64,000 bases of DNA, taken from NCBI RefSeq assembly GCF_900129765.1, contig NZ_FQWU01000006.1, positions 1 to 64,000 of the forward strand, given 5' to 3'. This DNA is from Massilia sp. CF038 (GTDB lineage Bacteria > Pseudomonadota > Gammaproteobacteria > Burkholderiales > Burkholderiaceae_D). A program made the translations under genes and the position numbers. A model generated the notes under the pieces. That model ran no database searches. It had not been told where the DNA came from and saw only the letters and a program-made list of their open reading frames with translations. Shown piece after piece: positions 8,264 to 63,537 of the stretch (its first letter is position 1; every line of letters begins with the position of its first letter).

Positions 8264-8361
8264 ACATCGCCCTCGCGCAGGCGGGGGCCTATTCCACTTT
8301 AGCAAATCCGGAAAAGCGCTATGGGGGCTCGCATGCGAGCCCGCCTTCGCGAGGGCGATGT
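8264..8361. repeat. REP/BIME-like long inverted repeat, copy 1
   Basis: This 98-bp element begins ACATCGCCCTCGCGCAGG and ends CCTTCGCGAGGGCGATGT, so its ends are inverted repeats. The left arm continues CGGGGGCCTATTCCA. The right arm is the variant form, in which GGGGGCTCGCATGCGAGCCC replaces the plain GGCCCCCG complement and so adds a small inner palindrome. It starts 3 nt after the response-regulator stop and lies about 105 bp upstream of the RAYT start codon. Further copies are at 35141, 43558, 56013 and 63453. It probably folds as a strong stem-loop at the end of the upstream transcript. Confidence 0.9.
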
Positions 8362-9278
8362 AAATGGGGACAGAGTCGCCCATGCAAATCCATCTTGCTA
8401 AAATAATTAGGGACAGGTCGAGCGCGATTCGCTAGAATCGGCTTTTCCTGTCCTTTTTACCGTCCCATGGCCCGCCTTCCCCGCCTCGTTGTCGCCAATT
8501 ACCCGCACCACATCATCCAATCTGGTAACAACAACCAGGCGATCTTCCGTGAAGACGAAGATTATCAGCGCTTTTTAGGCTGGCTGAAGGAAAGCGCCAA
8601 GGAATTCAAGGTGGCGATTCACGCCTACGCCCTGATGCAGGATCACCTTCACCTGCTGGCTACCCCTGCCACAGTCGAGGGCCTGGCCCAGACCATGCAA
8701 CGGGTCGGCCGCTATTACGTTCCCTGGTATAACGCCAAATATGCACGTAGCGGCGGCCTGTTCCAGGGCCGATTCAAGACTTCGCTGATCGATCCCGAAC
8801 GCTATTTCATGCTGGTCAGCCGCTATATCGAAACGAACGCCGTGCGCAATCTGCTTGTTTCCGACCCGCTGCACTATCCCTGGTCCAGCTACCCCCACCA
8901 TACCGGCATTAAACCAGACTCCGTCATCACCGATCACGCCCTGTATTGGGCTCTCGGCAATACGCCGTTTCAGCGCGAGGCTGCCTATATTGAACTGAGC
9001 CGCCCCTCCTTGAGCCCGGCTGAGCGGGAAGCGGTCGACGCGGCTGTATTGAAAGGCTGGCCCCTGGGTTCCGACAAATTCAAGGCCGAGCTACAGCTGC
9101 GCGCCAAGCGCCAGGTTCTGCCCGCCAAGCGCGGCCGCCCCTTCAAAAAGCCTGTCGAAGCAACCTGACATAACGATTTCTTGGACGCGCCCTGACCGAG
9201 TACTGCCGTGATCGACTGTGTCCCTAATTAATTTCCGCGTCAACCCACTTCCAATTAATTCGACTCCGACCCTATTTA
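8361..9278 (+). mobile_element. RAYT gene with nested inverted repeats
   Basis: Two nested pairs of inverted repeats enclose the RAYT gene. The outer pair is TAAATGGGGACAGAGTCG at 8361-8378 and CGACTCCGACCCTATTTA at 9261-9278, matching at 15 of 18 positions when inverted. The inner pair is AATTAGGGACAGGTCGA at 8405-8421 and TCGACTGTGTCCCTAATT at 9212-9229, which match with a single gap. The unit differs from canonical IS200/IS605 elements, whose ends are not simple inverted repeats. The element boundaries are my inference; no target duplication was looked for beyond these repeats. Confidence 0.6.
8467..9168 (+). CDS. REP-associated tyrosine transposase (RAYT), Y1/HUH family
   Basis: This 233-residue protein belongs to the IS200-like Y1 transposase superfamily, RAYT branch. 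It has the metal-binding HUH motif as His60-Leu-His62 in MQDHLHLL, the RAYT hallmark GGLFQGRFKTSLI (96-108), and a candidate catalytic tyrosine at Tyr120 in SRYIETNAVR. PWSSY follows at 138-142. RAYTs are single-copy domesticated relatives of transposases thought to cleave and spread REP hairpins by single-strand DNA chemistry. The basic C-terminus (KRGRPFKKP) fits DNA binding. The reading frame is intact. A REP-like hairpin lies just upstream and four more copies occur in the window, which supports the assignment. Confidence 0.9.
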   Translation: MARLPRLVVANYPHHIIQSGNNNQAIFREDEDYQRFLGWLKESAKEFKVAIHAYALMQDHLHLLATPATVEGLAQTMQRVGRYYVPWYNAKYARSGGLFQGRFKTSLIDPERYFMLVSRYIETNAVRNLLVSDPLHYPWSSYPHHTGIKPDSVITDHALYWALGNTPFQREAAYIELSRPSLSPAEREAVDAAVLKGWPLGSDKFKAELQLRAKRQVLPAKRGRPFKKPVEAT

Positions 9279-9284
9279 ATCTTA

Positions 9285-9312
9285 TTGACGCTGTCTGCTG
9301 CATTGCACTAAT
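9285..9312 (+). promoter_or_regulatory. Candidate promoter for gltBD
   Basis: TTGACG at 9285-9290 and ACTAAT at 9307-9312 are separated by 16 bp, giving a plausible sigma-70 promoter about 37 bp before the gltB ATG. The match is modest. It is the best candidate in the gap between the RAYT unit and gltB. Confidence 0.4.
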
Positions 9313-9348
9313 CTTGAGTTTCGACTTCAAAAGCTGTGGAGAAAACGC

Positions 9349-14064
<4,716 letters not shown>

Positions 14065-14094
14065 GCGCGCAACAGAGAACAAAAGGAAAACATC

Positions 14095-15558
14095 GTGGGT
14101 AAAATCACCGGCTTCATGGAATTCAAGCGTCAGGACGAGGGCTATCTCGAGCCCGCGGCGCGCCTCAAGAACTACAAGGAATTTGTCCTGCATCTGTCCG
14201 ACCCGCAAGCCAAAGTGCAGGCCGCGCGCTGCATGGATTGCGGCATCCCCTTCTGCAACAGCGGCTGCCCGGTCAACAACATCATCCCGGACTGGAATGA
14301 TCTGGTTTACCACGGCAACTACCGCGCTGCGCTGGAGAACCTGCACTCGACCAATAACTTCCCGGAGTTCACCGGCCGCATCTGCCCTGCGCCTTGCGAA
14401 TCGGCTTGCACCCTTGGCATCAACAACGATCCGGTCGGCATCAAGTCCATCGAACACAAGATCATCGATACCGGCTGGGAGCACGGCTGGGTCGTGCCCC
14501 TGCCACCGGAAACGCTGACCGGCAAGAAAGTCGCCGTGATTGGCTCCGGTCCGGCCGGGCTGGCAGCGGCGCAGCAACTGGCGCGCGTGGGCCACGCCGT
14601 CACCGTGTTTGAAAAGAGCGACCGCATCGGTGGCCTGCTGCGTTACGGCATCCCCGACTTCAAGATGGAAAAGACGCATATCGACCGCCGCGTCGAGCAG
14701 ATGCAAGCCGAGGGCGTCGTGTTCCGCACCAGCGTGTTGGTCGGCAAGGACTTCCCTGCCACCGTCAACAACTGGGCCAAGGAAACGATCTTCCCGGAAG
14801 ACCTGGCCAAGGACTTCGACGCCATCATCATGGCAGGTGGCGCCGAAGCGCCGCGCGACTTGCCAGTGCCTGGCCGCGAGCTCAAGGGCGTGCATTTCGC
14901 CATGGATTTCCTGCCGCTGCAAAACAAGGTCAACGCCGGCGACAAGGTCAAGGACCAGATCAAGGCCAGCGGCAAGCACGTGGTCGTCATCGGCGGTGGT
15001 GACACCGGTTCCGACTGCGTGGGTACCTCTAACCGCCATGGCGCCGCATCGGTCACGCAATTCGAATTGATGCCCATGCCACCGGAACAGGAGAACAAGC
15101 CGCTGGTCTGGCCCTACTGGCCGACCAAGCTGCGCACCTCGTCCTCGCACGAAGAAGGTTGCGAGCGCGACTGGGCCGTTGCCACCAAGCGCCTCGAAGG
15201 CAAGGGCGGCAAGGTCGAGAAGCTGATTGCTTGCCGCGTTGAGTGGAAAGACGGCAAGATGGCTGAAGTGCCGGATTCCGAATTCGAAATGAAGGCGGAC
15301 CTGGTCTTGCTGGCGATGGGCTTCGTGTCGCCAGTGCAGCAAGTGCTGGATGCCTTTGGCGTCGAAAAAGATGCGCGCGGCAACGCCAAGGCCACGACGG
15401 ACGGCGAAGGCTGCTACCAGACCAGCGTGCCGAAAGTGTTTGTCGCGGGCGACATGCGCCGCGGCCAGTCGCTGGTGGTATGGGCCATCCGCGAAGGGCG
15501 CCAGGCTGCTCGCGCTGTCGACGAGTTCCTGATGGGTTCGTCGGTTCTGCCGAGGTAG
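14095..15558 (+). CDS. gltD: Glutamate synthase small subunit
   Basis: GltD passes electrons from NADPH through FAD and iron-sulfur clusters to GltB. The 487-residue protein starts with GTG at 14095 behind AAAAGGAAAA. The N-terminal cysteine cluster [17 protein letters not shown] and a second set [10 protein letters not shown] bind 4Fe-4S clusters. The FAD-binding motif is [13 protein letters not shown] (near 145) and the NADPH-binding motif is [11 protein letters not shown] (near 300). A C-terminal [18 protein letters not shown] closes the FAD site. It forms an operon with gltB, closed by a terminator at 15597-15624. Confidence 0.98.
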
Positions 15559-15596
15559 TCGACGAAAACCAGATTGGTCTAAATACTATTCCTTGC

Positions 15597-15624
15597 AAAA
15601 GCCCGGCTGTATGCCGGGCTTTTT
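15597..15624 (+). terminator. Rho-independent terminator after gltD
   Basis: A perfect 7-bp stem GCCCGGC/GCCGGGC with a 5-nt loop is preceded by AAAA and followed by TTTTT. It lies 38 bp after the gltD stop codon. Confidence 0.9.
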
Positions 15625-16016: not shown

Positions 16017-16029
16017 GGTTGGCGCTTCC

Positions 16030-35140: not shown

Positions 35141-35227
35141 ACATCGCCCTCGCGGAGGCGGGGGCCTATTCCATGCCGCCGAAGTTGTTCTGCGTGGTAT
35201 AGGCCCCCGCCTCCGCGAGGGCGATGT
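35141..35227. repeat. REP/BIME-like long inverted repeat, copy 2
   Basis: This 87-bp copy is the most symmetrical. ACATCGCCCTCGCGGAGG at the left mirrors CCTCCGCGAGGGCGATGT at the right, and the complementarity continues through CGGGGGCCTA/TAGGCCCCCG. The spacer is about 29 bp. It lies 11 nt after tatC and should form a strong stem-loop in the tat transcript. Confidence 0.92.
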
Positions 35228-43557: not shown

Positions 43558-43659
43558 ACATCGTCCTCGCGCAGGCGGGGACCTATAGCACGTTGATCGA
43601 CTTCGGGGACGTGGAATAGGTCGCGAGGCGTCGCACCGCCGCCTTCGCGAGGACGATGT
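43558..43659. repeat. REP/BIME-like long inverted repeat, copy 3 (diverged)
   Basis: This 102-bp copy has ACATCGTCCTCGCGCAGG at the left and CCTTCGCGAGGACGATGT at the right. The C-to-T change in the left arm is matched by a compensating G-to-A in the right arm, so pairing is kept. The right arm is the long variant. The spacer shares CGTGGAATAGG with copy 4. It ends 3 nt from the stop codon of the minus-strand SNF2 gene. Confidence 0.9.
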
Positions 43660-43662: not shown

Positions 43663-46600
43663 TTAGCGCAAGCCATCCTGCAGCATGCGCAGCATATCCC
43701 CGGGCGACATGCGCGCTGACAGATCACTGCCTTCGAGCAGGCTGTCGGCCAAATCACGTTTGTGCTTGTGCAGATCCACGATGCCCTCTTCGATCGTATG
43801 CCGCGCGACCAGCCGGTAGATTGTAACCGGCCTTTGCTGCCCCATGCGATGCGCGCGGTCCGAGGCCTGATCCTCGACCGCAGGATTCCACCATGGGTCC
43901 ATATGAATCACGTAATCAGCCGCGGTCAGGTTGATCCCAACCCCGCCGGCCTTCAGGCTGATCAAGAATACGTCACCGCTGCCAGCCTGGAAGGCATCCA
44001 CCCGCTTTTTACGTTCCTGCATGGGGGTTGCGCCATCGAGGTACTGGTAGGCGATGCCTTGCTGGTCCAGGTGCTTGCGGATCAGCGTCAGGTGATCGAC
44101 GAACTGGCTGAAGACCAGCACTTTATGACGATTTTCCAGCAAGCCCTCGAGCAGGTGCGCAAACACCGTCAGCTTGCTGCTTTGCAGATGCAGCTCCGGG
44201 GCGACCAGATTCGGATTGCAGCAGGCACGCCGCAGCCGCATCATCTCGGCCAGGATCTGGATCGATTTCTGTGCCTCCGGCGCCTCCAGTGCGGCCAGTT
44301 TTTCCAAGGCTTCGCGGCGCAGCGATTCGTACAGCGTGGTTTCTTCGGCGGTCAGTTCGACCGGCAGCACGATCTCGGTGCGCGGCGGCAGTTCGGACAG
44401 CACCTGGGCCTTGGTCCGGCGCAGGATGAAAGGCTGGATCAAACGCTTCAGACGCAGGCGCGCGCCTGCCTCGGCGCGTTTGTCCTGGGCCCGCTCGATC
44501 GGTCCCGCAAAGCGCAGGTTGAACTGGTCGCTGGTGCCCAGCAAACCGGGGTTGATGAAGCGGAACAGGTTCCACAACTCGCCCAGGTGGTTTTCCAGCG
44601 GGGTGCCGGTGGCAACCATGCGGAAGTCGCCCTGCAGCGCCATCACGGCCTGCGAGCGCTTGGTGGCGTTGTTCTTGATCGCCTGCGCTTCGTCCAGCAC
44701 GATCGTGGTCCAGCGCTGCTTGACGAACGATGGTGCTTCCAGCTGCAGCAAGCCGTAACTGGCGATCACCAGATCGAAAGGCCCGGCTTCGCTCAGCATG
44801 GCGGCGCGGTCGCCGGGTCCGAACAGCTTGACGTTCAGGGTGGGGGCAAAGCGCGCCGCCTCGCTGATCCAGTTCATGCAGACGGAGGTAGGGGCAATGA
44901 CGAGGGTTGGTCCTTGTGGCGCGCGCATCAGAATCAGCGCCAGCGCCTGCAGCGTTTTGCCCAGGCCCATGTCGTCGGCCAGGCAGGCGCCGACGCCCCA
45001 GTGGGCCAGGCGCGCCAGCCATTCGAAGCCTTCCAGCTGATAGTCCCGCAGCTGCGCTTGCAGGGTACTGGGCAGCTGCGGCGTGTAGCTGGTGTTATCG
45101 GCCATGCGCGCCAGATGCGCGCGCCAGGCCTGGTCAGCATCGACGCTACCCGCGTCGTTGGCCAGGTCTTCCAGCGCGAAGCTGGCCAGCGGGTGCACGC
45201 GCACGCCATCACCATGCTCGGTGCCAAAGGCCGACAGCTCCATCAAGCGCCGGTGCAGCTCGGAGGTCAGGGCCAGGAATTGGTTGTCGCCCAGTGCGAC
45301 AAAGCGGCCTCGGCTCGACTTGAGTGATTCGAGCAAGGTGCGCAGATCCATGACGCGATTTTCGTCAATCTGCAGTTCGGCCTTGGCCGCGAACCAGTCC
45401 TTGTCGCGCTTGATGCTCAATCGGACCGATTTGGAATCGGCCTTTTTCACGACCCGGAACGATTCGCCTTCCGGCCACGCCATGACCACCTGGTCCGTGT
45501 CCAGTGCTTGCAGTTCGCTTAATAGTTCCAGGCAGGCGATGGGCTGGCCCAGCAGCCACTCGCCATGATCGGCTTCGGCTTCTTCCAGCGTCCGGCAATG
45601 CGCGACCAGCTGCCGTTCGGCTTCGCGTTCGGCGCTCAGGTCGCGCCGCGCTTCAACCCGCACGCCGTTGACGTCGGCAATCACGCTTTCGTGGCCGGAG
45701 CCGGGTGCGTAGTAGGCTCCGGCGTCAGGCAGGGGGCGCACCAGGATCTGCATTTTCAGGCCGTGCTGGTAGGGCAGCAAATGCACGTGCAGGCGCGGGT
45801 CCGCCTTGACCTGCGCAATGTCGCCCGCGCTGCTGCCAATATCGGATTGCACCGTCACGATGGACGAGATGGCGCCGATCGCCTTGAGCACCTGCTTTTC
45901 CGCGTGCAGCGGCACTACCAGGCCATCGCCCACAATGGCGCCAATGCGGCGATGCTCGTCCTTGATGCGCACAACCCGCAGACGAGTCGGCGTTTCGCGG
46001 GTCACGACCACGTCGTCGGTATCGTCCAGAATGGCGGGCCGCATGCTGATGGTGACGTTGACCGGGTCGGCCTTGATCAGCAGCTCCGGCTCGCCAGGCA
46101 GCAGTTCGACTCGCGTGGCGGGGGACTCGATCCAGTACAGCATGGGGTGGCCAATCAGCGCTGCCACCGCTTTCTCGAGGTCGAATTCGTAGCGCGCACC
46201 GCTGCTGCTGTAGTACTTGTAAGCCTTGATGGTGGCAATCGCATTCAAGTCCTGGGCCGTCAAGAATTCCATCGTCGGCGCGTCTTCTGCCAATCGCTTC
46301 AGACCCACCGCGCGGCCGCGGCTCCAGCCGCCCTGCGCATCGCGCTTCTGTTCGCGCGGTTCAAGTTCCTGCACGCCGTAGTGCGGATCGAACTTGATGC
46401 CCCATACCAGGCGCGTTTCCTTGACCACTTCGACGTTCACCGCCGGCTGCAAGTTGATCAGCGCGTTGAGCTGGCGCTGCCATGGCTCTTCGCGCTCGAA
46501 CCAGGCGGCAAATTCGCCGAAGCGGTGCTGCTGGCGCAGGGCGATGGCACGCTGTTCGAATGGGACCCGTCCCAGGCGCCCCAGCAGCGACGCCAGCTGC

Positions 46601-47793
46601 GCGCTGAGCAGATCGAAGCCGGCCCGCTCGGACAGATCCAGCATGTCTTCAATGGCGGCCTTGCGCTCATTGAGCTGTGGCTGGGCCAGCCAGTAGTGGA
46701 GCAAGGCGCGGAACAGATAGGGCTGCATGGCCGTTTCCCAGTTACGGGTCGGGAGCACGGCCGCATCGACCGTGCCGCCCCGGATCTGGCGCAGCATGCT
46801 CAGTTGCTGGTAGACGGCCGTGTCGTGGCTTTGCACGGCACGCGTGGCGATATCGAGATACGCTTCCGCCGCCTTGTGGTGCTTCGGGTCGGTGCTGCGC
46901 AGCAGGGCCAGCACATATAAATGGCCGCCAAAACCCGGGAAGCACATTTTGCGCTTGCCGGTTTCGCGGCGCAGCGTCTTGAGGGCGGCTTCAAAGCCGG
47001 CAATGGCCTGTTCCAGGTCGTCGCGCAGCAGCGCAATCACGCTGCGGTAAAACAGCGCGAGCGAGTCGTCCAGGTCGTCCAGCATGGCGTGCGCGTCGTC
47101 CAGGCGCCCGCACAGGATCAAATGTTCAGCCATCACCGCGCGCAATGCCATCGATGGCGCACCCTTGGCCATGTGGCGTTCAGCGTAGCTGCGGATCAGC
47201 GGCGCGCTGGCCGGCTCGCGCTGGGTATTCTCGACCAGCACGGTCAGCACTTCGTCGCGCAGCAAGGGGTGGATGCGGGCAAACAGTTCGGGCTCGAACG
47301 GACGCGCACAGATGTCGACCAGCGGGTGCAGATAGCCCGCTTCATGGCATGCCATGCATGCGGCCAGCAAGGGGAAGGCCACGTCCGGATCGCCGCCGCC
47401 GATCAGGCAAATGCGCAGCAGCGCAATGCCCTGACGGTAGCTGCGCAAAATTGCGGCGCCTTCCCAGTTGCGCCGCAATGGCGCCAGCGCCTGGTAGGCC
47501 GTGGCCATCGGCGCAAATTTGCCGCTGTCGAGCAAGGCCTTGAGGGCGGGCCAGGTGAGTTCCGGCGTGGCCACCCAGCCGCGGTGGTTCATTTCGGCGA
47601 TCACGCCCAGGGCGCGCAGTTTGGCCAGATCGTAGGCCAGCAAATCGTCGTCGTCCCCAATTTCGGCGGCGGCAAGATGCTCCAGAATGCGTGTGCGGCC
47701 CATCGGCTCGCCGGCCAGGGCGAGCAGCGCCACGATCATTTTTTCGTGAAAATCGAGTGCTTCAAACTGCGCGTGCAAAGCTGTTCCGGTCAT
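43663..47793 (-). CDS. Large SNF2-family ATPase
   Basis: The 1376-residue protein starts at ATG 47793, overlapping the S9 peptidase stop; the longer open frame is not coding in family terms. The C-terminal ~480 residues are the motor: GLGKT at 943-947, DEAQ at 1034-1037, then GTPLENHLGELWNLF, FSQFVDHL, LKAGGVGINLTAADYVIH and DRAHRMGQ. The long N-terminal part (about 900 residues) begins with a helical region (ALDFHEKMIVALLALAGEP), then a tetratricopeptide-like stretch rich in Ala/Leu/Arg, and ends in beta-rich segments. It resembles the large bacterial HepA/SNF2 proteins but has no clear SWIM finger. Substrate unknown. Confidence 0.9.
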   Translation of the reverse strand: MTGTALHAQFEALDFHEKMIVALLALAGEPMGRTRILEHLAAAEIGDDDDLLAYDLAKLRALGVIAEMNHRGWVATPELTWPALKALLDSGKFAPMATAYQALAPLRRNWEGAAILRSYRQGIALLRICLIGGGDPDVAFPLLAACMACHEAGYLHPLVDICARPFEPELFARIHPLLRDEVLTVLVENTQREPASAPLIRSYAERHMAKGAPSMALRAVMAEHLILCGRLDDAHAMLDDLDDSLALFYRSVIALLRDDLEQAIAGFEAALKTLRRETGKRKMCFPGFGGHLYVLALLRSTDPKHHKAAEAYLDIATRAVQSHDTAVYQQLSMLRQIRGGTVDAAVLPTRNWETAMQPYLFRALLHYWLAQPQLNERKAAIEDMLDLSERAGFDLLSAQLASLLGRLGRVPFEQRAIALRQQHRFGEFAAWFEREEPWQRQLNALINLQPAVNVEVVKETRLVWGIKFDPHYGVQELEPREQKRDAQGGWSRGRAVGLKRLAEDAPTMEFLTAQDLNAIATIKAYKYYSSSGARYEFDLEKAVAALIGHPMLYWIESPATRVELLPGEPELLIKADPVNVTISMRPAILDDTDDVVVTRETPTRLRVVRIKDEHRRIGAIVGDGLVVPLHAEKQVLKAIGAISSIVTVQSDIGSSAGDIAQVKADPRLHVHLLPYQHGLKMQILVRPLPDAGAYYAPGSGHESVIADVNGVRVEARRDLSAEREAERQLVAHCRTLEEAEADHGEWLLGQPIACLELLSELQALDTDQVVMAWPEGESFRVVKKADSKSVRLSIKRDKDWFAAKAELQIDENRVMDLRTLLESLKSSRGRFVALGDNQFLALTSELHRRLMELSAFGTEHGDGVRVHPLASFALEDLANDAGSVDADQAWRAHLARMADNTSYTPQLPSTLQAQLRDYQLEGFEWLARLAHWGVGACLADDMGLGKTLQALALILMRAPQGPTLVIAPTSVCMNWISEAARFAPTLNVKLFGPGDRAAMLSEAGPFDLVIASYGLLQLEAPSFVKQRWTTIVLDEAQAIKNNATKRSQAVMALQGDFRMVATGTPLENHLGELWNLFRFINPGLLGTSDQFNLRFAGPIERAQDKRAEAGARLRLKRLIQPFILRRTKAQVLSELPPRTEIVLPVELTAEETTLYESLRREALEKLAALEAPEAQKSIQILAEMMRLRRACCNPNLVAPELHLQSSKLTVFAHLLEGLLENRHKVLVFSQFVDHLTLIRKHLDQQGIAYQYLDGATPMQERKKRVDAFQAGSGDVFLISLKAGGVGINLTAADYVIHMDPWWNPAVEDQASDRAHRMGQQRPVTIYRLVARHTIEEGIVDLHKHKRDLADSLLEGSDLSARMSPGDMLRMLQDGLR

Positions 47794-56012: not shown

Positions 56013-56111
56013 ACATCGCCCTCGCGAAGGCGGGGGCCCATCCCATGTTACCGAATTCGGCAACGTGGAATAGGGGGCTCGCATGCGAGCCCGCCTCCGC
56101 GAGGGCGATGT
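56013..56111. repeat. REP/BIME-like long inverted repeat, copy 4
   Basis: This 99-bp copy has ACATCGCCCTCGCGAAGG at the left and CCTCCGCGAGGGCGATGT at the right, with the long right-arm variant GGGGGCTCGCATGCGAGCCC as in copy 1. It fills the gap between two convergent genes, ending 3 nt before the stop codon of the minus-strand gene at 56115. Confidence 0.92.
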
Positions 56112-56114
56112 GGT

Positions 56115-56600
56115 TCAGTTCAGATAGGTCGCATCCAGCCGCCCTGCCGCAGCCAGCTCGCGCACAATCCGAATCGTGTCAATATCGGCCTCCTGATACG
56201 CCGACTTGCGGAACTCGTCGTACATGGCATTGGCCGCATCGGTCGCCGCATCATGCCCATCGTCATACTGGAAGCGCACATACAGCGTGTGTTCCGACGG
56301 CGCCTCAATTGTCATCACCAGACTTGACGCGCTGATCTCGCCCTGCGCCGCCACTTCGTAACGCACCTGATGCAGCGGCGTCAAAATCACACGGTCGACG
56401 ATTTCCAACTCGCCGTAGCGCAGGCGGCGCCGGAAGCTGCCGCTTTCGCGCTCGTCGATGGTGCACTCGTCAAGGTGTGGAATGAACATCTTGGGCGAGT
56501 CCGCGCGCAGCACCAGCCCGCGCCAGAGCTGGTCGCGGCTAATGGTGTCGATGAGTGGGTTGAGGGGATCGTTAATCTCGATCAGGTGTTCAAATTTCAT
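56115..56600 (-). CDS. SRPBCC-fold protein (DUF1857/AtaL-like)
   Basis: The 161-residue protein begins MKFEHLIEINDPLNPLID and continues QLWRGLVLRADSP, typical of DUF1857 members of the START/SRPBCC fold, which have a deep hydrophobic ligand pocket. ATG 56600 is chosen since the family N-terminus begins there; the frame extends to 56717. The ligand is unknown. Its stop lies 3 nt from a REP-like hairpin. Confidence 0.85.
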   Translation of the reverse strand: MKFEHLIEINDPLNPLIDTISRDQLWRGLVLRADSPKMFIPHLDECTIDERESGSFRRRLRYGELEIVDRVILTPLHQVRYEVAAQGEISASSLVMTIEAPSEHTLYVRFQYDDGHDAATDAANAMYDEFRKSAYQEADIDTIRIVRELAAAGRLDATYLN

Positions 56601-56715
56601 GGTGCGGCACTCGTTATGATGGGGCGCGCAATGCGCCGATACCGCGATGGTAACGCATGGACAGCGCGCCTGCATTTGTGCGCGCTGGAAACGTTGAAAA
56701 GAGTACACTGCCCGC

Positions 56716-57258
56716 ATGAGAAGCCAACGCAGCGATTACCTGGCCCACGTCGAGGCCGTCCAGCAGCGCAGTAAAGCGCATGTTGAGCAATCGATCGCCG
56801 AAAAGCGGACCATTTCGCGCAGCCTGCCCGAAATGGACGACGAGGCCAGCTTTGGCCAGCGCGCGGCCGACGCGGTGGCGCGCTTTGGCGGTTCGTGGGC
56901 CTTCATCGGCATATTCGCGCTGGTGCTGGGCGGCTGGGTGCTGCTCAATTCCTGGCTTTTGCTGCGCGACGGGCACAAGCCTTTCGATCCCTTCCCCTAC
57001 ATCTTGCTGAACCTGGTGCTGTCGATGCTGGCCGCGATCCAGGCGCCCGTGATCCTGATGTCGCAAAATCGGCAGGGCGAGAAAGACCGCCTGACCGCGC
57101 TGCACGATTACGAGGTCAATCTCAAGGCGGAGCTGGAGATCATGGCGCTGCACAAAAAAATGGACGAATTCAAGCTGCAGCTGGTCGAATTGCAGCAGGA
57201 GCAGCTACGCCTTCTGAACGCCCTGTGCACCAAGCACGAGATCGACGCCCAGCTCTAA
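56716..57258 (+). CDS. DUF1003 membrane protein
   Basis: The 180-residue protein has the DUF1003 core: SFGQRAADAVARFGGSWAFIG, then two membrane helices (FALVLGGWVLLNSWL and PYILLNLVLSMLAAIQAPVI) with FDPFPYILLN between them and SQNRQGEKDRLTA after. The C-terminus is a coiled coil (about 145-172). Function unknown. Its stop overlaps the convergent lysR gene by 4 bp. Confidence 0.88.
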   Translation: MRSQRSDYLAHVEAVQQRSKAHVEQSIAEKRTISRSLPEMDDEASFGQRAADAVARFGGSWAFIGIFALVLGGWVLLNSWLLLRDGHKPFDPFPYILLNLVLSMLAAIQAPVILMSQNRQGEKDRLTALHDYEVNLKAELEIMALHKKMDEFKLQLVELQQEQLRLLNALCTKHEIDAQL

Positions 57259-58166
57259 TCGGGCAAGCCTTCGTCCCAGTACGGCACCGGCCCGAAACGC
57301 GCCGCAAAATAGTCGATGAAGGCCACTGTCTTGGGTGGCAGATAATTACGGTTCAGGTACTGGGCCGACACCACCGACTGCGGCACGATTGGATACTGCC
57401 CCAGCACCCGCACCAGCGCGCCGCTCTTGAGCTGTTCGTACATGGCCCATGTCGACTGCAGCGCGATGCCCAGGCCGGCCACCGCTGCATCGCGCAGGGC
57501 TTCCCCGTTATCGCTCTGCATGCGCCCACGCACGCGCATGACGATCTCGCCATCCCGATCCTGAAACCGCCACGGGTGAAAGCCGTCCAGCACTAGGCAC
57601 TCATGCTGCGTCAGATCATGGGGCGTGGCCGGCGTGCCATGCCGCGCCAGATAATCGGGCGAGGCGCATAGCCACAGGCGGCTGGGCGCCAGCGTGCGCG
57701 CCACCAGGGCCGAATCGCGCAACGGGCCGATCCGCACCGCCACATCGATTCCATTGACTGCCAGGTCGATCACCCGGTCCGACAGGCGCAGGTCGAGCCG
57801 GATGCCGGGATACAGGGCCAGAAACGCCGCCAGCGAGGGCATCAGATGCAGACGTCCGAACGAGACCGAAGCTGCGACCCGCAGCAAGCCATGCGGCCCC
57901 TCGGCGCCGCCACCGACCGAGGACTCGGCCAGTTCGGCCGCTTCCAGCAGCGCCACAGCGCGCTCGAGAAAGGCTTCGCCATCCTGCGTCAGCGCGATCT
58001 GGCGCGTGGTCCGGTGCAGCAGGCGCGCGCCGAGCTGGCGTTCGAGCTGCGCCATGCGGGCGCTGGACGCGGCTGGCGACAGGCCAAACTCGCGCCCCGC
58101 AGCCGACAGATTGCGGGTGGCGCATACCCGCACAAACAGGGCGACATCGATCAGGTCCAGGCTCAT
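57255..58166 (-). CDS. LysR-family transcriptional regulator
   Basis: The 303-residue protein has the LysR winged helix-turn-helix at about 1-60 (FVRVCATRNLSAAGREFGLS) and a substrate-binding-like effector domain after 90. It is divergent from a quinone oxidoreductase-type gene with a 102-bp gap, the usual arrangement of a LysR regulator and its target. Confidence 0.93.
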   Translation of the reverse strand: MSLDLIDVALFVRVCATRNLSAAGREFGLSPAASSARMAQLERQLGARLLHRTTRQIALTQDGEAFLERAVALLEAAELAESSVGGGAEGPHGLLRVAASVSFGRLHLMPSLAAFLALYPGIRLDLRLSDRVIDLAVNGIDVAVRIGPLRDSALVARTLAPSRLWLCASPDYLARHGTPATPHDLTQHECLVLDGFHPWRFQDRDGEIVMRVRGRMQSDNGEALRDAAVAGLGIALQSTWAMYEQLKSGALVRVLGQYPIVPQSVVSAQYLNRNYLPPKTVAFIDYFAARFGPVPYWDEGLPD

Positions 58167-58268
58167 TATTCTGTTTTGGTGAATAGCTATTTAAGCATTA
58201 TGCCAATTATCAAACGAATCGGCGAGCCTCACACTGGGTGCACTCAATCAAACAACAGGAGCCCCACC
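58167..58268. promoter_or_regulatory. Divergent lysR / oxidoreductase promoter region
   Basis: The 102-bp gap separates the divergent start codons. It contains the perfect palindrome AATAGCTATT at 58182-58191, 15 bp upstream of the lysR start, and A/T-rich sequence through 58215. A LysR site is expected here by analogy; the exact T-N11-A box is not established. Confidence 0.45.
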
Positions 58269-59261
58269 ATGAAAGCCATCGCCGTCCAGAACGGAACCCT
58301 GCAAGACCTGACATTGCCCCTGCCGCAGCCCGGCGCGCGCGACCTGGTCGTCAAAATCGAAGCCATTTCGGTCAATCCGGTTGATCACAAGGTGCGCGCC
58401 GGCGAAGCCGCCGACGCCCCCGCGCGCGTGCTGGGCTGGGACGCTGCCGGCACCGTGACGGCAGTGGGACCGGAAGTGACCCTGTTCCGGCCGGGCGACC
58501 AGGTGTATTACGCGGGCAGCATCGTGCGCCCCGGCGCCAACAGCGAGTACCACCTGGTGGACGAGCGAATCGCCGCGCGCAAGCCAGCCACACTCGATTT
58601 TGCTCAGGCTGCAGCGCTGCCGCTGACCAGCATCACCGCATGGGAAGCCTTGTTCAACCGGCTTGGCATTTCCCGTGGCGGCGCCGACCAGGGCAAGCGG
58701 ATTCTGATTGTTGGCGGTGCCGGCGGGGTGGGTTCAATTGCGATTCAGCTGGCCAAAAAGCTGGCGCGCCTGACGGTGGTGGCAACGGCGTCGCGGCCCG
58801 AGTCCGGCGCCTGGTGCAAGCGCCTGGGCGCGGACCACGTGATTGATCACAATGGCGACATCCCGGCGCAGCTGGCGGCGCTTGGCATGCCGGGCGTGGA
58901 CTACATTTTGTGCCTGAACGAGATCGACAAGCACTTCCCGGCGCTGGTGGAGGCGATCGCGCCGCAGGGCCGCATCTGCAGCATCCTGGGCAACCAGGCG
59001 CCATTGGCGCTCGATGGTTTGTTCACCAAGAGCGCAGGACTGGTGTTCGAACTGATGTTCACCCGCTCGATGTTCGAAACCAGCGACATGCTCGAGCAGC
59101 ATATCCTGCTGACCGAAGTGGCAGGCCTGGTCGATGAAAAGGTGCTGGTGACCACTGTCGGCGAATCGTTTGGGAAGATCAACGCAGCCAATATCGAACG
59201 GGCGCATGCGGCTTTGCTGGGCCGGCGCATGATCGGCAAAATTGTTCTGGCGGGCTTTTAA
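58269..59261 (+). CDS. Zinc-type alcohol dehydrogenase-like / quinone oxidoreductase, MDR superfamily
   Basis: The 330-residue protein belongs to the medium-chain dehydrogenase/reductase superfamily. GWDAAGTVTAVGPEVTLFRPGDQVYYAG is the catalytic-domain signature and LIVGGAGGVGSIAIQLAKKL (near 140-160) is the NADPH-binding motif. The cysteine zinc ligands of true alcohol dehydrogenases are absent, which fits quinone reductases. ATG 58269 is preceded by ACAGGAG. It is probably controlled by the divergent LysR regulator. Confidence 0.9.
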   Translation: MKAIAVQNGTLQDLTLPLPQPGARDLVVKIEAISVNPVDHKVRAGEAADAPARVLGWDAAGTVTAVGPEVTLFRPGDQVYYAGSIVRPGANSEYHLVDERIAARKPATLDFAQAAALPLTSITAWEALFNRLGISRGGADQGKRILIVGGAGGVGSIAIQLAKKLARLTVVATASRPESGAWCKRLGADHVIDHNGDIPAQLAALGMPGVDYILCLNEIDKHFPALVEAIAPQGRICSILGNQAPLALDGLFTKSAGLVFELMFTRSMFETSDMLEQHILLTEVAGLVDEKVLVTTVGESFGKINAANIERAHAALLGRRMIGKIVLAGF

Positions 59262-59267
59262 CCGCCC

Positions 59268-59963
59268 TCAGGTCAGCAGCCCGACACGCTGGCGCCGCTG
59301 CAGGAACGCGATCCCCACCAGGATCGCGAACGAAATCGCCAGCAGCACAATCGCATACGCGTGCGCGGTCGGGTAGTTGAGCTTTTGTGCTTCGTCGTAC
59401 AGGGCAATCGAGGCGACCCGGGTTTGCCCGGGAATGCTCCCGCCCAGCATCAGCACCACCCCGAATTCGCCCATGGTGTGCGCAAAGCTGAGCGAGACGC
59501 CCGTGAGCAAACCGTGCTTTGACAGCGGCATCACGATTGACCAGAAGGTCTGGCGCGGCGTGAGCCCCAGCGCCAGCGCCGATTCCACCATCGACGGCTT
59601 GATGCTGCGGAAGGCTTGCTGAAACGGCTGCACCGCAAATGGCAGGCTGTAGATGACCGAGCCGATGACCAGCCCGGTGAACGAAAACGGCAGCGGCTGA
59701 CCGAACACGCTGACCCATGCCGCGCCGAGCGGCTGCTGGGGCGACATCAGCAGCAACAGGTAAAAACCAATCACCGTTGGCGGCAGCACGATGGGCAGGC
59801 TGACCAGCGTTTCAATCAGAATTGCACCCCGCATGCGGCTGGTATTGAGCCACTGTGCCAGCGGCACGCCGATCACCAGCAGGACGAGCGACGACACCGC
59901 CGCCAGGCGCAGTGTCAGGCCCACCGCCTCCCACAGGGCAGGCGGAAACGACCAGTCAAGCAT
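59268..59963 (-). CDS. modB: Molybdate ABC transporter permease
   Basis: ModB is the membrane permease of molybdate uptake. The 231-residue protein has about five helices and the permease motif SFAHTMGEFGVVLMLGGSIPGQT, with the EAA-like loop (ALALGLTPRQTFWSIVMPL). It overlaps modA by 8 bp. No modC is downstream: the next gene is convergent and only 6 bp away. Confidence 0.95.
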   Translation of the reverse strand: MLDWSFPPALWEAVGLTLRLAAVSSLVLLVIGVPLAQWLNTSRMRGAILIETLVSLPIVLPPTVIGFYLLLLMSPQQPLGAAWVSVFGQPLPFSFTGLVIGSVIYSLPFAVQPFQQAFRSIKPSMVESALALGLTPRQTFWSIVMPLSKHGLLTGVSLSFAHTMGEFGVVLMLGGSIPGQTRVASIALYDEAQKLNYPTAHAYAIVLLAISFAILVGIAFLQRRQRVGLLT

Positions 59964-60720
59964 CCTTCTCGCGCGGCAGGGAAAAGCCGTGGCGCAGCAG
60001 GATCGCGCGCGCGGCCGGCGATTGGAGGAACTGCATGAAGCGTGGCGCCAGTGGATTGGCCGCGCCGTGGCGCGTGATGATGGCGCCCTGTTCGATGGGC
60101 GGCGTGCCGTCGGAAGGAATCAGGTAGTAGCTACCCATGCCCTTGACCTTGGGAGCCAGAACGGTTGCGTAAGAGACGACGCCGATCTGCGCATTGCCGG
60201 TCTGGACAAACTGCGCGGTCTGGGCGATGTTTTCGCCCAGGACCAGCTTGGGCTTGACCACGTCCCAGAACCCCAGCGCGGTCAGTGAGGCACGCGCTGC
60301 GCGGCCGTAAGGCGCGACATCAGGGTTGGCGATGGCGAAGCGCGTCAGGCGTTCGTCGTTCAGCACGCGCATACCCTGGCTCAGGTCAAAGCGCTTGTCC
60401 AGCGACCAGAGCACGATGCGGCCAATTGCGTAGGGGGCCAGGGTAGCCGCATCGGCCGCGCCCTCCTGGGCCAGCTGGGCCGGATACTTCATGTCCGCTG
60501 ACAGGAAGACATCGAATGGCGCGCCGTTCTTGATCTGGGCGAAAAAATTCCCCGACGCCCCCAGCGACGTTTTGACCTCGGCACCAGGCACCTGCTGCGC
60601 GAAGGCGCTCGACAGCTCCTCGATACTATAGGTAAGGTCTGCCGCTGCCGCGACGGTGAGCGTCTCGGCCGACACTGGCAGCGCGAGGCTGGCCAGCAGG
60701 GTCATGATCAATTTTTTCAT
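59956..60720 (-). CDS. modA: Molybdate-binding periplasmic protein
   Basis: ModA captures molybdate in the periplasm. The 254-residue protein has a signal peptide (LIMTLLASLALPVSA) and the family markers VAAAADLTYSIEEL, KTSLGASGNFFAQIKNGAPFDVFLSAD and a C-terminal binding region. It is divergent from rep across an 86-bp gap. Confidence 0.95.
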   Translation of the reverse strand: MKKLIMTLLASLALPVSAETLTVAAAADLTYSIEELSSAFAQQVPGAEVKTSLGASGNFFAQIKNGAPFDVFLSADMKYPAQLAQEGAADAATLAPYAIGRIVLWSLDKRFDLSQGMRVLNDERLTRFAIANPDVAPYGRAARASLTALGFWDVVKPKLVLGENIAQTAQFVQTGNAQIGVVSYATVLAPKVKGMGSYYLIPSDGTPPIEQGAIITRHGAANPLAPRFMQFLQSPAARAILLRHGFSLPREKDA

Positions 60721-60806
60721 CCTGTTATTCTACGACAGCTTCACCGCGCATGCGCGGGCGCCGGTGCGCTACAATGGCTGGCTGTTTTATCCAAGAATGC
60801 CCTCCG

Positions 60807-62867
60807 ATGTCCTCCGCCCCCAAGTTTGGCCTGAACGTACCCCAGAGCGAAGCTGTCATGTATCTTGACGGCCCGTGCCTGGTGCTGGCCGGCGCCGGTT
60901 CGGGCAAGACGCGCGTGATCACCCAGAAGATCGCCCACCTGATCGAAGACCGTGGCTACGACCCGCGCACCATCGCCGCGCTGACCTTCACCAACAAGGC
61001 AGCACTGGAGATGCAGGAGCGCATTGCCAAACTGCTCAAGCAGCCGCGCCAGGCCAAGCAATTGACGGTATCGACCTTCCACTCGCTGGGTGTCAAAATC
61101 CTGCGCCAGGAAGCGGCGGGCGTGGGCCTGAAGGATCGCTTTTCGATCATGGACAGCGACGATTGCTATGGCCTGGTGCAGGATCTGGCCATCACCACCG
61201 ACAAGCAGCTTATTCGCAGCATTCAGAATTCGATCTCGCTCTGGAAAAACGGCCTGGTCGACCCGGAAGACGCGATCAAGAACGCCAAAGACGAAGACGA
61301 AGCCCAGGCTGCGCGCGTGTTCCGCAGCTATGTGGCCACTCTGGCCGCATACCAGGCGGTGGACTTCGACGACCTGATTCGCCTGCCTGTGGAACTATTC
61401 CGCAATAACGATCCGATTCGCGACAAGTGGCAGCGCCGTCTGCGCTATCTGCTGATGGACGAATACCAGGACACCAACACCTGCCAGTACGAGCTGGTGA
61501 AGCTGCTGGTCACCGGGATTGGCAAAAAGCCGATGTTCACCGCCGTGGGCGACGACGATCAGGCCATTTATGCCTGGCGCGGCGCGTCGGTGGAAAACCT
61601 GAAAACGCTGGGCGAGGACTTCCCCGACCTGAAGGTCATCAAGCTCGAACAGAACTACCGGTCCACCACGCGTATTCTGCAGGCGGCCAATGCAGTCATC
61701 GGCAACAACCCCAAGCTGTTCGAAAAGGCCCTGTGGTCGGAACATGGCCTGGGTGAGCCGATCAAGGTGCTGGGCATGCAGACCGACGACCAGGAAGCCG
61801 AGCAGGTGGCGATCATGATTTCGGCTGACCGTTTCCAGCGCAAGAACAAGTGGTCCGACTACGCGATTCTGTACCGCGGCAACCACCAGGCGCGCGTGAT
61901 CGAGCAGTCGCTGCGCAAGGAGCGCATTCCATACACGATCTCCGGCGGCCAGAGCTTCTTCGACAAGGCGGAAATCAAGGACATCATCAGCTACCTGCGT
62001 CTGATCGCCAACGACGGCGACGATCCTGCCTTCATCCGCGCGGTGACCACGCCCAAGCGCGGTGTCGGCATGGCGACTCTGGAAGTGCTGGGCGAGTTTT
62101 CCAAGCAGTGGAATTGTTCGCTGTTTGAAGCGACTTTCAAGGGTGGCATCGAAGCCAAGCTGGCCGACCGCCAGCTGCTGCCGCTGCGCGACTTCTGCAA
62201 TTTCATCAACCAGCTCGAAGCGCGCGCCAGCCGTCCAGGGCCATCGGGCAGCGGCGAAAACGCAGCCGCGGTGCTGGATGACATGATGAAAGAGATCGCC
62301 TACGAGAGCTATCTGTACGACGTGTTTGAAGAGCGCGCGGCGCAGAGCAAATGGCAGAACGTGCTGGAATTTACCAACTGGCTCAAGGAGCGCGGCAACG
62401 GCGGCAAGGACAAGTCGGGCGAAGAAAAGAACCTGCTCGAACTGACGCAGATGGTGGCCCTTATGAGCATGCTCGAAGGTCAGGACGAGGAGCCCGACGC
62501 GGTGCGCATGTCGACCCTGCACGCTTCCAAGGGGCTGGAATATCCGCACGTATTTCTGGTGGGGGTCGAAGAAGGCATCTTGCCGCACAAGGGCGACCCG
62601 GATGCGCCGATAGAAACGATCGCTGCGCGGGTGCAGGAAGAGCGGCGCCTGATGTACGTGGGGATCACGCGCGCCCAGCGTACCTTGCAGATCACCTGGT
62701 GTAAAAAACGCAAACGGGCGGGCGAACAGGTGCATTGCGACCCCTCGCGCTTCATCAAGGAGATGGCGCTCGACGTGGGCGACGCCGTGCCAACGGAAGC
62801 GGAAACGCTGTCGCCCAAAGACCGTCTGGCCAGCTTGAAGGCGCTGCTGAACACCCCCAAAACATGA
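60807..62867 (+). CDS. rep: ATP-dependent DNA helicase Rep (UvrD family)
   Basis: Rep is a 3'-5' single-strand DNA helicase that clears forks. The 686-residue protein has Walker A GAGSGKT at 29-35 (CLVLAGAGSGKTRVITQKI), LMDEYQDTN, AVGDDDQAIYAWRGA, EQNYRST and VRMSTLHASKGLEY, the motifs of the UvrD/Rep family, and matches Rep more closely than UvrD in its N-terminus and length. ATG 60807 is chosen since MSSAPKFGLNVPQ starts the fold. slyX overlaps its stop. Confidence 0.94.
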   Translation: MSSAPKFGLNVPQSEAVMYLDGPCLVLAGAGSGKTRVITQKIAHLIEDRGYDPRTIAALTFTNKAALEMQERIAKLLKQPRQAKQLTVSTFHSLGVKILRQEAAGVGLKDRFSIMDSDDCYGLVQDLAITTDKQLIRSIQNSISLWKNGLVDPEDAIKNAKDEDEAQAARVFRSYVATLAAYQAVDFDDLIRLPVELFRNNDPIRDKWQRRLRYLLMDEYQDTNTCQYELVKLLVTGIGKKPMFTAVGDDDQAIYAWRGASVENLKTLGEDFPDLKVIKLEQNYRSTTRILQAANAVIGNNPKLFEKALWSEHGLGEPIKVLGMQTDDQEAEQVAIMISADRFQRKNKWSDYAILYRGNHQARVIEQSLRKERIPYTISGGQSFFDKAEIKDIISYLRLIANDGDDPAFIRAVTTPKRGVGMATLEVLGEFSKQWNCSLFEATFKGGIEAKLADRQLLPLRDFCNFINQLEARASRPGPSGSGENAAAVLDDMMKEIAYESYLYDVFEERAAQSKWQNVLEFTNWLKERGNGGKDKSGEEKNLLELTQMVALMSMLEGQDEEPDAVRMSTLHASKGLEYPHVFLVGVEEGILPHKGDPDAPIETIAARVQEERRLMYVGITRAQRTLQITWCKKRKRAGEQVHCDPSRFIKEMALDVGDAVPTEAETLSPKDRLASLKALLNTPKT

Positions 62868-63085
62868 ACATGGAGTTTGCAGTGAGCCAGGAAGAACGCT
62901 TCGTCACGATCGAAATCAAGCTCGCGCACCAGGAAGACCTGGTCGATGAGCTCAACAAGCTGGTGTACCAGCAAAGCCGCCGCATCGACCAGCTCGAGGC
63001 CATGGTAAGCAAACTGGCCGAGCATGTGCGTAACAACGCGCATTCAGGGCCGGGCACGCTGAACGAGAAGCCGCCGCACTACTGA
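62864..63085 (+). CDS. slyX: SlyX-family protein
   Basis: This 73-residue protein is a short coiled coil with the SlyX core IEIKLAHQEDLVDELNKLVYQQ. Its function is not established. It overlaps rep (ATGA) and its TGA overlaps the next ATG, so rep, slyX and the DUF2809 gene are likely one operon. Confidence 0.9.
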   Translation: MNMEFAVSQEERFVTIEIKLAHQEDLVDELNKLVYQQSRRIDQLEAMVSKLAEHVRNNAHSGPGTLNEKPPHY

Positions 63086-63483
63086 TGCGGCGGCATCGGG
63101 GCTGGTTATGCGTTGCGCTGGCGCTGGTCATCGCACTGGGGCTGGCCTCGCGCCGCGTGCCTGGTTTGTTCCCGCAGGTGCTGCAAAATTATCCGGGTGA
63201 CGCCTTGTGGGCGGTGGCGCTGTTTTTGTGCATTGCGCTTTTGCGGCCTGCGATGCCGTGCGGGATGCTGGCGTCATTGGCGCTGATCGTCGCTTGGGTC
63301 GATGAATTTGCGCAGCTGATCCAGGCGCCATGGCTGGTTGCGCTGCGGCGCACAACGGCGGGGCATCTGGTGCTCGGTTCCGGCTTCGATCCGCTGGACC
63401 TGGTGGCGTATGCAATCGGCATCGCCCTGGCCGCAACCGTCGATTACCTCCTACATCGCCCTCGCGGAGGCGGGGGCCCATAA
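63085..63483 (+). CDS. DUF2809 membrane protein with a REP-encoded C-terminus
   Basis: The 132-residue protein has several hydrophobic helices and the DUF2809 pattern: ASRRVPGLFPQVLQNYPGDALWAVALF near the start and VDEFAQLIQAPW in the middle. The last residues HRPRGGGGP (codons from 63454) and the stop codon are encoded by the left arm of a REP-like hairpin (63453-63537). The protein therefore probably gained its present end when the repeat arrived. Function unknown. Confidence 0.82.
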   Translation: MRRHRGWLCVALALVIALGLASRRVPGLFPQVLQNYPGDALWAVALFLCIALLRPAMPCGMLASLALIVAWVDEFAQLIQAPWLVALRRTTAGHLVLGSGFDPLDLVAYAIGIALAATVDYLLHRPRGGGGP

Positions 63484-63537
63484 CACCTCACCGAATCCGC
63501 ACACGTGGCATAGGCCCCCGCCTGCGCGAGGGCGATG
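63453..63537. repeat. REP/BIME-like long inverted repeat, copy 5
   Basis: This 85-bp copy has ACATCGCCCTCGCGGAGG at the left and CCTGCGCGAGGGCGATGA at the right, with the short right-arm form as in copy 2. Its left arm overlaps the end of the DUF2809 gene and contains the stop codon region. The spacer shares CCGAATCC and ACGTGG with other copies. Confidence 0.92.

What the first reader, a model, noticed from the sequence alone, without database searches (positions are those of the whole stretch)
8264..63537. Dispersed family of five REP/BIME-like hairpins with a resident RAYT
Five copies of a long imperfect inverted repeat (85-102 bp; 8264-8361, 35141-35227, 43558-43659, 56013-56111, 63453-63537) share the ends ACATCGYCCTCGCG and CGCGAGGRCGATGT. 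A RAYT gene (8467-9168) with an intact HUH motif lies 105 bp from copy 1. RAYTs are known partners of REP sequences in other bacteria (established). That this RAYT spreads this family is inference. Copy 3 shows a compensating base change that keeps pairing, which suggests selection on the stem.
Basis: partly seen in the sequence, partly recalled or inferred. Interest (0 to 1): 0.8.

Follow-up and report, generated by a model that had tools for sequence, protein, structure and literature searches.

The report
CATC-tagged hairpin repeats with GIY-YIG nuclease
The five hairpins belong to a family of hundreds of short mobile-looking repeats in a Massilia genome, and the gene that goes with them appears to be a tiny GIY-YIG DNA-cutting enzyme elsewhere in the genome rather than the neighbouring RAYT transposase.

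Summary
In detail: five hairpins at the stated places. The 5.66-Mb Massilia genome holds 550 exact arms and 168 exact two-arm elements.

The RAYT partnership is not supported. All 17 genus genomes searched carry this RAYT's orthologue; only three carry the repeat in number. None of 38 named relatives has an arm nearby; 33 of 38 carry another repeat beside the gene (AGGGACAG type), as TIRYTs do.

Each arm is a small hairpin: CATC tag, 8-bp stem GYCCTCGC/GCGGGGRC, loop GNAG, tail CYAT. Base changes compensate within an arm, not across the long hairpin. It is a CATC-tagged offshoot of the CGTC-type REPs of its congeners, paired with tags outward.

A 2013 paper found no enzyme for CGTC REPs. The candidate here is a 97-aa GIY-YIG nuclease, in this genome lying between two arms. 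All 11 intact Massilia copies have an exact arm within 135 bp, and 13 of 15 sampled records from other genera carry CGTC-type hairpins beside it. It resembles Neisseria Ssn (recalled, not read).

The nuclease linkage is well supported; cutting at the tag and the way copies spread are inferred.

The parts
8264..8361 (.). Copy 1: tag-outward (HH) pair of CATC arms, 98 bp; the right arm carries an extra palindrome (GGCTCGCATGCGAGCC)
   Evidence: absent from the same site in relatives
35141..35227 (.). Copy 2: HH pair of plain arms, 87 bp, 11 bp after a predicted stop codon
   Evidence: empty site in G014 and G015
43558..43659 (.). Copy 3: HH pair of T-type arms, 102 bp; the right arm is an alternative type with an extra hairpin
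56013..56111 (.). Copy 4: HH pair between predicted convergent genes, 99 bp
63453..63538 (.). Copy 5: HH pair of plain arms, 86 bp; last base A instead of T
8467..9168 (+). Judged not to belong to the repeat system
8366..8416 (+). Left terminal repeats of the Y1 gene (GGGGACAGAGTCG at 8366, AATTAGGGACAG at 8405)
9213..9266 (-). Right terminal repeats of the Y1 gene (CGACTGTGTCCCT at 9213, TTAATTCGACTC at 9255)

Best explanation
The hairpins are tag-outward pairs of small REP units. Each unit is CATC + 8-bp stem + 4-nt loop + CYAT. They are a lineage-specific, CATC-tagged offshoot of the CGTC-type REPs found across most of the genus. The enzyme that goes with them is not the RAYT but a 97-aa GIY-YIG nuclease resembling the recalled Neisseria Ssn family; in this genome it sits between two arms (G000:C2:55309-55599, outside the window). 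Shown: the anatomy, pairing within arms, tag switch, intergenic placement near gene 3' ends, insertion without long target duplication at two sites, and the nuclease-repeat linkage in Massilia and in other genera. Inferred: the nuclease recognises the arms as single-stranded DNA and cuts at or near the tag; copies spread through that cutting followed by host repair or recombination; the arm-gene-arm unit is the autonomous form and the ~86-bp pairs are its gene-less derivatives; once in place the hairpins act mainly as transcript 3'-end structures.
For: Arm pairing: the 6/23 and 7/22 pairs are Watson-Crick in 154 and 155 of 168 arms, against shuffled means of 79.9 and 144.1 (maxima 100 and 149); covariation score 0.179 against 0.084 +/- 0.010, 0 of 500 shuffles. 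Of 84 dimers, 32 differ between arms at pair 6/23, 22 of them on both sides. Genus: arms of the looser type CNTC number 60-703 in 14 of 17 genomes and 0, 3 and 20 in the rest; CATC makes up 635 of 703 in G000, 46 of 92 in G014, 47 of 206 in G007 and at most 4 elsewhere. Nuclease: in 13 of 17 genomes, one gene each, PF01541 over cut-off. All 11 intact copies have an exact arm within 135 bp, at four or more genomic sites including the flhA-flhF region and beside dnaE. Only 1 of 1354 predicted genes in the C2 sample lies between two outward arms within 100 bp: this one. Its unit ends match the best-matching dimer ends at 40/43 and 37/40 bases. Other genera: 13 of 15 fetched records have CGTC-, TGTC- or CCTC-tagged hairpins within ~320 bp of the gene, shuffled mean 0.01-0.07; in 7 of 15 the nearest hairpin on each side has its tag outward. 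Control stretches of five of those plasmids: 2-15% of dummy genes have a formal match, and none of the 18 matches in 150 kb is a CCA-tailed repeat of these kinds. The Neisseria gonorrhoeae homologue is 52.7% identical with 7 such hairpins near it. Placement: 96 of 99 dimers intergenic, 39 of them convergent.
Against: G001 (225 arms) and G015 (130 arms, 81% complete) have no detectable nuclease, so the repeat can persist without it. Presence tracks arm number only moderately: 12 of 14 against 0 of 3, p = 0.015, not corrected for relatedness. Seven of the intact Massilia copies share one region, so they are not independent. Planktothrix and Spirosoma homologues have no such hairpin. Inside the arm, the unit's ends agree with dimer ends only modestly on average: 6.3 and 5.3 of 13 bases, random 3.5. 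GIY-YIG nucleases are not known to join DNA, so the way copies spread is unexplained. No biochemical test was possible, about 4 of the 5.66 Mb were not read, and the Ssn paper could not be read.
Confidence: 0.78

Rival explanations
1. The window's RAYT (8467-9168) recognises and spreads the hairpins, as GTAG-type RAYTs do for their REPs.
For: Copy 1 lies 105 bp from the gene; the protein class (Y1 HUH) is the right one for REP processing.
Against: Orthologue in all 17 genomes, repeat numerous in 3. With CNTC arms (up to one mismatch), 2 of 17 orthologue loci have a match within 215 bp: the window's own and a G004 match (CTTCACACTCGCGTAAGCG) judged chance. 0 of 38 named relatives by the ACATCG pattern, 1 of 38 by CNTC, with that same CTTC sequence. 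The gene has its own TIRs and scores 51.8 bits against the NCBIfam RAYT cut-off of 80. Copy 1 is an insertion missing at the same site in relatives.
Confidence: 0.03
2. The nuclease gene is only one more insertion target or passenger of the repeats; the repeats are relics spread by an enzyme now lost or not found.
For: G001 and G015 hold many arms without a detectable nuclease; about 13% of C2 genes have an arm within 215 bp anyway; Di Nocera 2013 suggested that CGTC enzymes may have been lost (PMC3733652, passage).
Against: 11 of 11 intact Massilia copies and 13 of 15 sampled records elsewhere are flanked, against 2-15% for dummy genes in five of those plasmids; the repeat type at the gene differs between hosts.
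Confidence: 0.12
3. The hairpins are kept only as RNA or DNA structures (bidirectional terminators, mRNA 3' protection) and their spread is old.
For: 96 of 99 dimers intergenic, 39 of these 96 in convergent gaps that hold 15% of intergenic DNA; median 36 nt to flanking gene 3' ends; very stable folds.
Against: Compensation is within arms and ignores the long stem; copies 1 and 2 are missing at the same site in relatives; copy number varies greatly between species. Not exclusive with the main reading.
Confidence: 0.07
4. Ordinary MITEs of a DDE insertion sequence.
For: Terminal inverted repeats, about 86 bp, high copy number.
Against: No target duplication visible at the two sites with an empty counterpart; no transposase among the 10 of 1354 C2 genes with arms on both sides within 400 bp, judged by eye from their first 60 residues; each arm is a hairpin in itself.
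Confidence: 0.03

Closest known systems
CGTC-tagged REPs (Di Nocera et al. 2013, PMC3733652; includes dRS3 of Neisseria)
   Same: 8-bp stem, 4-nt loop, short CCA-like tail, mostly tag-outward (HH) dimers, intergenic, no RAYT flanked by them; congeners carry plain CGTC versions
   Different: Tag is CATC (204 of 240 arms in the sample); first stem pairs are G-C and Y-R instead of A-T; a T-G wobble in the stem in 179 of 187 in-register arms
Ssn, GIY-YIG site-specific single-strand nucleases acting on the NTS repeat in Neisseria (recalled from memory; paper not held)
   Same: Small GIY-YIG protein; the Neisseria gonorrhoeae homologue found here is 52.7% identical and flanked by CGTC hairpins
   Different: Massilia member with CATC repeats; activity not tested; in G000 the gene lies between the two arms of a pair. 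That the gonococcal homologue is Ssn itself is inferred
REPINs / GTAG REPs with RAYT (Bertels and Rainey 2011, search listing seen; PMC6006769, section 12 and passages seen)
   Same: Paired inverted small hairpins with variable spacer, hundreds of copies, genome-specific
   Different: No GTAG tag; no cognate RAYT; the linked enzyme is a GIY-YIG nuclease
TIRYT / TIRtron (Di Nocera 2013); PMC6006769 says its subclass 2.1 probably corresponds
   Same: The window's Y1 gene is flanked by GGGGACAG / AGGGACAG repeats, fitting or nearly fitting GGGGWSAS
   Different: No dispersed family of these repeats in the 1.6-Mb sample

Membership tests
CGTC-tagged REP | CGTC tag (TGTC, CCTC variants reported) | tested here: not met
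   CATC in 204 of 240 arms, CGTC in 16, CCTC 4, TGTC 2, others 14; filed only as a derived offshoot because congeners hold CGTC forms and G014 and G007 hold CATC and other CNTC forms
CGTC-tagged REP | 8-9 bp stem, 4-5 nt loop, short CCA-like tail | tested here: met
   8 pairs, 99.5% of cells paired, loop GNAG; tail CYAT in most arms
CGTC-tagged REP | A-T pairs in the first two stem positions (almost invariable) | tested here: not met
   G-C then Y-R
CGTC-tagged REP | Mostly HH dimers | tested here: met
   198 of 232 arms lie in 99 HH dimers
GTAG REP / REPIN with RAYT | GT[AG]G tag and flanking of the RAYT by the repeat | tested here: not met
   CATC tag; of 17 orthologues only the window's own has what I judge a real arm near it
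RAYT (NCBIfam REP_Tyr_transpos) | Score above the curated cut-off of 80 bits | tested here: not met
   51.8 bits
TIRYT | Y1 gene flanked by TIRs of GGGGWSAS type, not by REPs | tested here: met
   33 of 38 relatives on at least one side, 27 on both
Ssn-like GIY-YIG nuclease | GIY-YIG domain | tested here: met
   PF01541 42.7 bits, cut-off 22.6
Ssn-like GIY-YIG nuclease | Gene accompanied by its cognate repeat (feature recalled) | tested here: met
   11 of 11 intact Massilia copies, 13 of 15 other records
Ssn-like GIY-YIG nuclease | Sequence-specific cutting of single-stranded DNA only (feature recalled) | not testable with these tools
   needs purified protein
MITE of a DDE insertion sequence | Target-site duplication | tested here: inconclusive
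   none seen at two empty sites, but only two sites, compared by eye with diverged relatives

The most novel reading that the evidence does not exclude
CGTC-type REPs and a GIY-YIG nuclease form one two-part mobile system with no transposase: an autonomous arm-nuclease-arm unit (418 bp here) and gene-less ~86-bp derivatives, moving by single-strand cuts at the tag plus host repair. In the G000/G014 lineage the tag changed from CGTC to CATC together with a W-to-F change at an otherwise near-invariant position of the nuclease, which points to a residue that may read the tag.
Probability: 0.35. Interest if true: 0.82.

Novelty: new variant of a known kind. Interest (0 to 1): 0.62.

Why it matters
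Di Nocera et al. (2013) left open which enzyme serves the widespread CGTC-tagged REPs. The linkage seen here, in Massilia and in records from other genera, names a small GIY-YIG nuclease as the candidate, and a natural tag switch (CGTC to CATC) gives a direct test: do the nucleases of the two kinds of genome cut their own tag and not the other? It also warns that a RAYT beside a REP-like repeat is not evidence of partnership. Part of this may already be in the Ssn paper (recalled, unread), which keeps the novelty at variant level.

Tried and rejected
RAYT as partner: rejected on distribution, flanks and family cut-off. The two other Y1 genes of the genome (L001, L003) and the further Y1 loci L087-L099: 0 of 15 loci (14 genes; L095 is the same gene as L001, and L092 and L099 are cut short) have an arm nearby. 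Rfam at gathering thresholds: no match in the window. Canonical CGTCATTCCCGCG arms within 3 mismatches in the C2 sample and the window: none. PDB sequence search with the nuclease: the best hits are WD-40 entries of unclear meaning, with one UPF0213 chain (1zg2) at E 0.005; not used. Phage collection: no homologue of the nuclease. Papers: listings of searches for Massilia REPs, Janthinobacterium repeats (10 of 21,111 listed), CGTC transposase (15 of 23 listed), dRS3, REPIN/Neisseria and GIY-YIG/Ssn (15 of 107 listed) showed nothing that names this family or its nuclease; that is limited to this open-licence library and mostly to titles and abstract starts. A first translation of the nuclease loci used the wrong strand for the minus-strand ones and was redone.

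Dropped rows: in the arm statistics, 21 of 208 arms (104 dimers) were out of register and left out of pair counts; arms of the alternative types and some further variants among 65 distinct in-register arms were left out of the 47-arm alignment; of 33 plasmid-collection hits 18 were not fetched. The looser CNTC pattern is not free of chance matches: reversed control 0-5 per genome without mismatches and 6 on one strand of the C2 sample with one mismatch.
Full report
Observation. The five hairpins exist as described. Nine of ten ends match exactly and the tenth has one mismatch. Their folds are very stable. The Y1 gene at 8467-9168 is real. RAYT relatives in named Massilia genomes at up to 80% identity place the window in or next to Massilia.

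Size of the family. The whole genome (5.66 Mb) holds 266 + 284 exact arms, with zero matches to the reversed control, and 168 exact two-arm elements. In a 1.6-Mb sample of contig C2 there are 232 arms at up to two mismatches (control 0), 99 outward pairs and 34 single arms. The window is therefore an ordinary piece of a repeat-rich genome.

What an arm is. In register, an arm reads (A)CATC-GYCCTCGC-GNAG-GCGGGGRC-CYAT. The base before CATC varies (163 of 187 are A), and loop base N varies (A 110, C 43, G 31, T 3). Of plain arms, 158 of 158 are T-A or C-G at positions 6/23. Over the 84 pairs with both arms in register, positions 6/23 and 7/22 are Watson-Crick in 154 and 155 of 168 arms, against shuffled maxima of 100 and 149. 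On 47 distinct arms the covariation score is 0.179 against 0.084 in shuffles, 0 of 500 reaching it. Mixed pairs (one T-type, one C-type arm) are common: 13 of 59 plain pairs. The unit that is inherited and paired is thus the arm hairpin; the long hairpin follows from two arms facing each other. Shuffles ignore relatedness, and two positions carry most of the signal. At 6/23, 14 of 187 in-register arms are not Watson-Crick.

Where copies lie. By a simple hexamer gene finder of my own, 96 of 99 pairs are intergenic, against 274 of 3000 random placements. Of the 96, 39 are between convergent genes and 11 between divergent genes; convergent gaps hold 27.8 of 187.5 kb of intergenic DNA. The median distance to flanking gene 3' ends is 36 nt over 124 distances. 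Copy 1 is missing in at least eight relatives that keep the same upstream regulator gene, and copy 2 is missing in G014 and G015. The junctions show no long duplication, but only two sites were compared, by eye.

The RAYT. Its orthologue is in 17 of 17 genus genomes at 68-80% identity, two of them interrupted by stops, whereas exact arms are numerous in only three (550, 55, 39) and 0-3 in the other 14; a 20-base arm pattern occurs in 3 of 294 genomes drawn from the family. None of 38 named relatives has the 14-base arm within 3 kb. Within 250 bp upstream or 300 bp downstream of the gene, 33 of 38 carry AGGGACAGAGTCG-type repeats, 27 on both sides; control stretches 0 of 38; the five without are among the most distant loci, L036-L040 (alignment). 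With the looser CNTC pattern, 2 of 17 orthologue loci have a match within 215 bp: the window's own copy 1 and a G004 match that I judge chance because its sequence is not of the arm type; 1 of 38 named relatives shows that same sequence. The protein scores 51.8 bits where the NCBIfam RAYT model asks for 80; the two other Y1 genes of the genome also fall below it (71.2 and 67.8). The flanking motif fits GGGGWSAS, which Di Nocera et al. 2013 (abstract, passages and three sections read) give for TIRYTs. PMC6006769 (section 12 and passages read) reports no REP-like sequences beside subclass 2.1, which it says probably corresponds to TIRYTs; I did not assign the subclass by a tool.

Relation to CGTC REPs. 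Di Nocera et al. describe CGTC-tagged REPs: 8-9 bp stems, 4-5 nt loops, CCA tails, mostly HH dimers, no dedicated transposase. A degenerate pattern CNTCNYNCYCGCGNANGCG finds 703 arms in this genome and 60-296 in 13 others of the 17 (20, 3 and 0 in G005, G012 and G013; reversed control 0-5 per genome). The listed arms of G001 and G002 are CGTC types. CATC accounts for 635 of 703 here, 46 of 92 in G014, 47 of 206 in G007 and at most 4 elsewhere. A tree of one gene of about 750 bp joins G000 and G014 (support 0.988), then G015 (0.979). The window's family is therefore best read as a tag-switched offshoot of the genus's CGTC REPs. By strict definition it fails the tag test and the A-T stem-start test.

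The nuclease. Looking for genes with CNTC arms on both sides within 400 bp gave 10 of 1354 predicted C2 genes. One encodes a 97-aa protein with a GIY-YIG domain at G000:C2:55309-55599. It is the only gene of the 1354 lying between two outward-facing arms within 100 bp. The 418-bp unit's ends match the best-matching pair ends at 40 of 43 and 37 of 40 bases; just inside the arm the average agreement is modest, 6.3 and 5.3 of 13 bases against 3.5 for random 13-mers. In the genus, 13 of 17 genomes have one homologue. The 11 intact ones all have an exact arm within 135 bp; the G014 copy, interrupted in the assembly, has a degenerate arm at 77 bp; the G013 copy, shortened inside, has none, and that genome has no arms. 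Seven intact copies have an FlhF- or FlhA-like neighbour, two lie beside dnaE, and G007 and G000 are elsewhere (one example of each neighbour checked by profile, the others by likeness), so there are at least four sites. Of 14 genomes with 60 or more arms 12 have the gene; of three with 20 or fewer none has an intact one (p = 0.015). The exceptions are G001 and G015.

Other genera. The nuclease has relatives in 33 plasmid-collection records and none in the phage collection. I fetched 15 of the 33. In 13 of 15, CGTC-, TGTC- or CCTC-tagged hairpins lie within about 320 bp, against shuffled means of 0.01-0.07; in 7 of 15 the nearest hairpin on each side points its tag outward. The repeat differs by host (8-bp stem with 4-nt loop in Neisseria, Aeromonas, Azospirillum and Photobacterium; 9-bp stem or 5-nt loop types in rhizobia and sphingomonads). 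The two without are Planktothrix and Spirosoma. In 30-kb control stretches of five of the same plasmids, 2-15% of dummy genes had a formal match on at least one side, and none of the 18 matches was a CCA-tailed repeat of these kinds. Species or groups named by Di Nocera et al. for CGTC repeats (Neisseria, S. meliloti, A. lipoferum, N. aromaticivorans) are among the hosts.

A possible tag reader. Across 27 aligned sequences the position after REKxxKx is W in 25, F in this genome and Y in one Shinella; the G014 fragment also has F. G000 and G014 are the two sisters with many CATC arms. This is one evolutionary event, so it is a hint, not a test.

Mechanism. Shown: linkage, anatomy, tag switch. 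Inferred: single-strand cutting at the tag, spread by repair after cutting, the embedded gene as the autonomous form, a transcript-end role. From memory, a 2025 paper describes Ssn, GIY-YIG nucleases that cut only single-stranded DNA at a repeat called NTS in Neisseria and affect natural transformation; I could not find it, so how much of the present linkage is already in print is unknown to me.

Noticed in passing
G000:C2:1399759-1400568 and C2:2219700-2220226: Tandem arrays of whole pairs: five pairs spaced 179-182 bp and four pairs spaced 147 bp.
   Followed up: no
window copies 1, 3, 4; 45 of 104 pairs in the combined set: At least one arm departs from the plain form; many carry an extra palindrome (such as GGCTCGCATGCGAGCC or a CCGGCGCATGCGCCGG type) in the 3' half of the arm. 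Origin unknown.
   Followed up: partly
window 8366-8416 and 9213-9266: Terminal repeats of the Y1 gene, conserved in relatives but with no dispersed family in the 1.6-Mb sample: a single-copy TIRtron.
   Followed up: partly
window 3145-6267 (+) and 43663-47778 (-): Two large predicted genes related at DNA level (inverted repeat pair I1, 182 nt at 71%, and shorter pairs), probably paralogues.
   Followed up: no
G007 (47 CATC of 206 arms): A genome that is not the sister of G000/G014 holds a CATC minority although the arms near its nuclease are CGTC; separate origin or transfer.
   Followed up: no
G001 (225 arms), G005 (20 arms), G015 (130 arms): CNTC arms without a detectable nuclease; possible gene loss, or for G015 (81% complete) a missing piece.
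   Followed up: no
L247 (Planktothrix agardhii plasmid): A homologue of the nuclease lies between an MmeI-type restriction gene and DISARM drmA, without the repeats; perhaps a different use of the same enzyme family.
   Followed up: no
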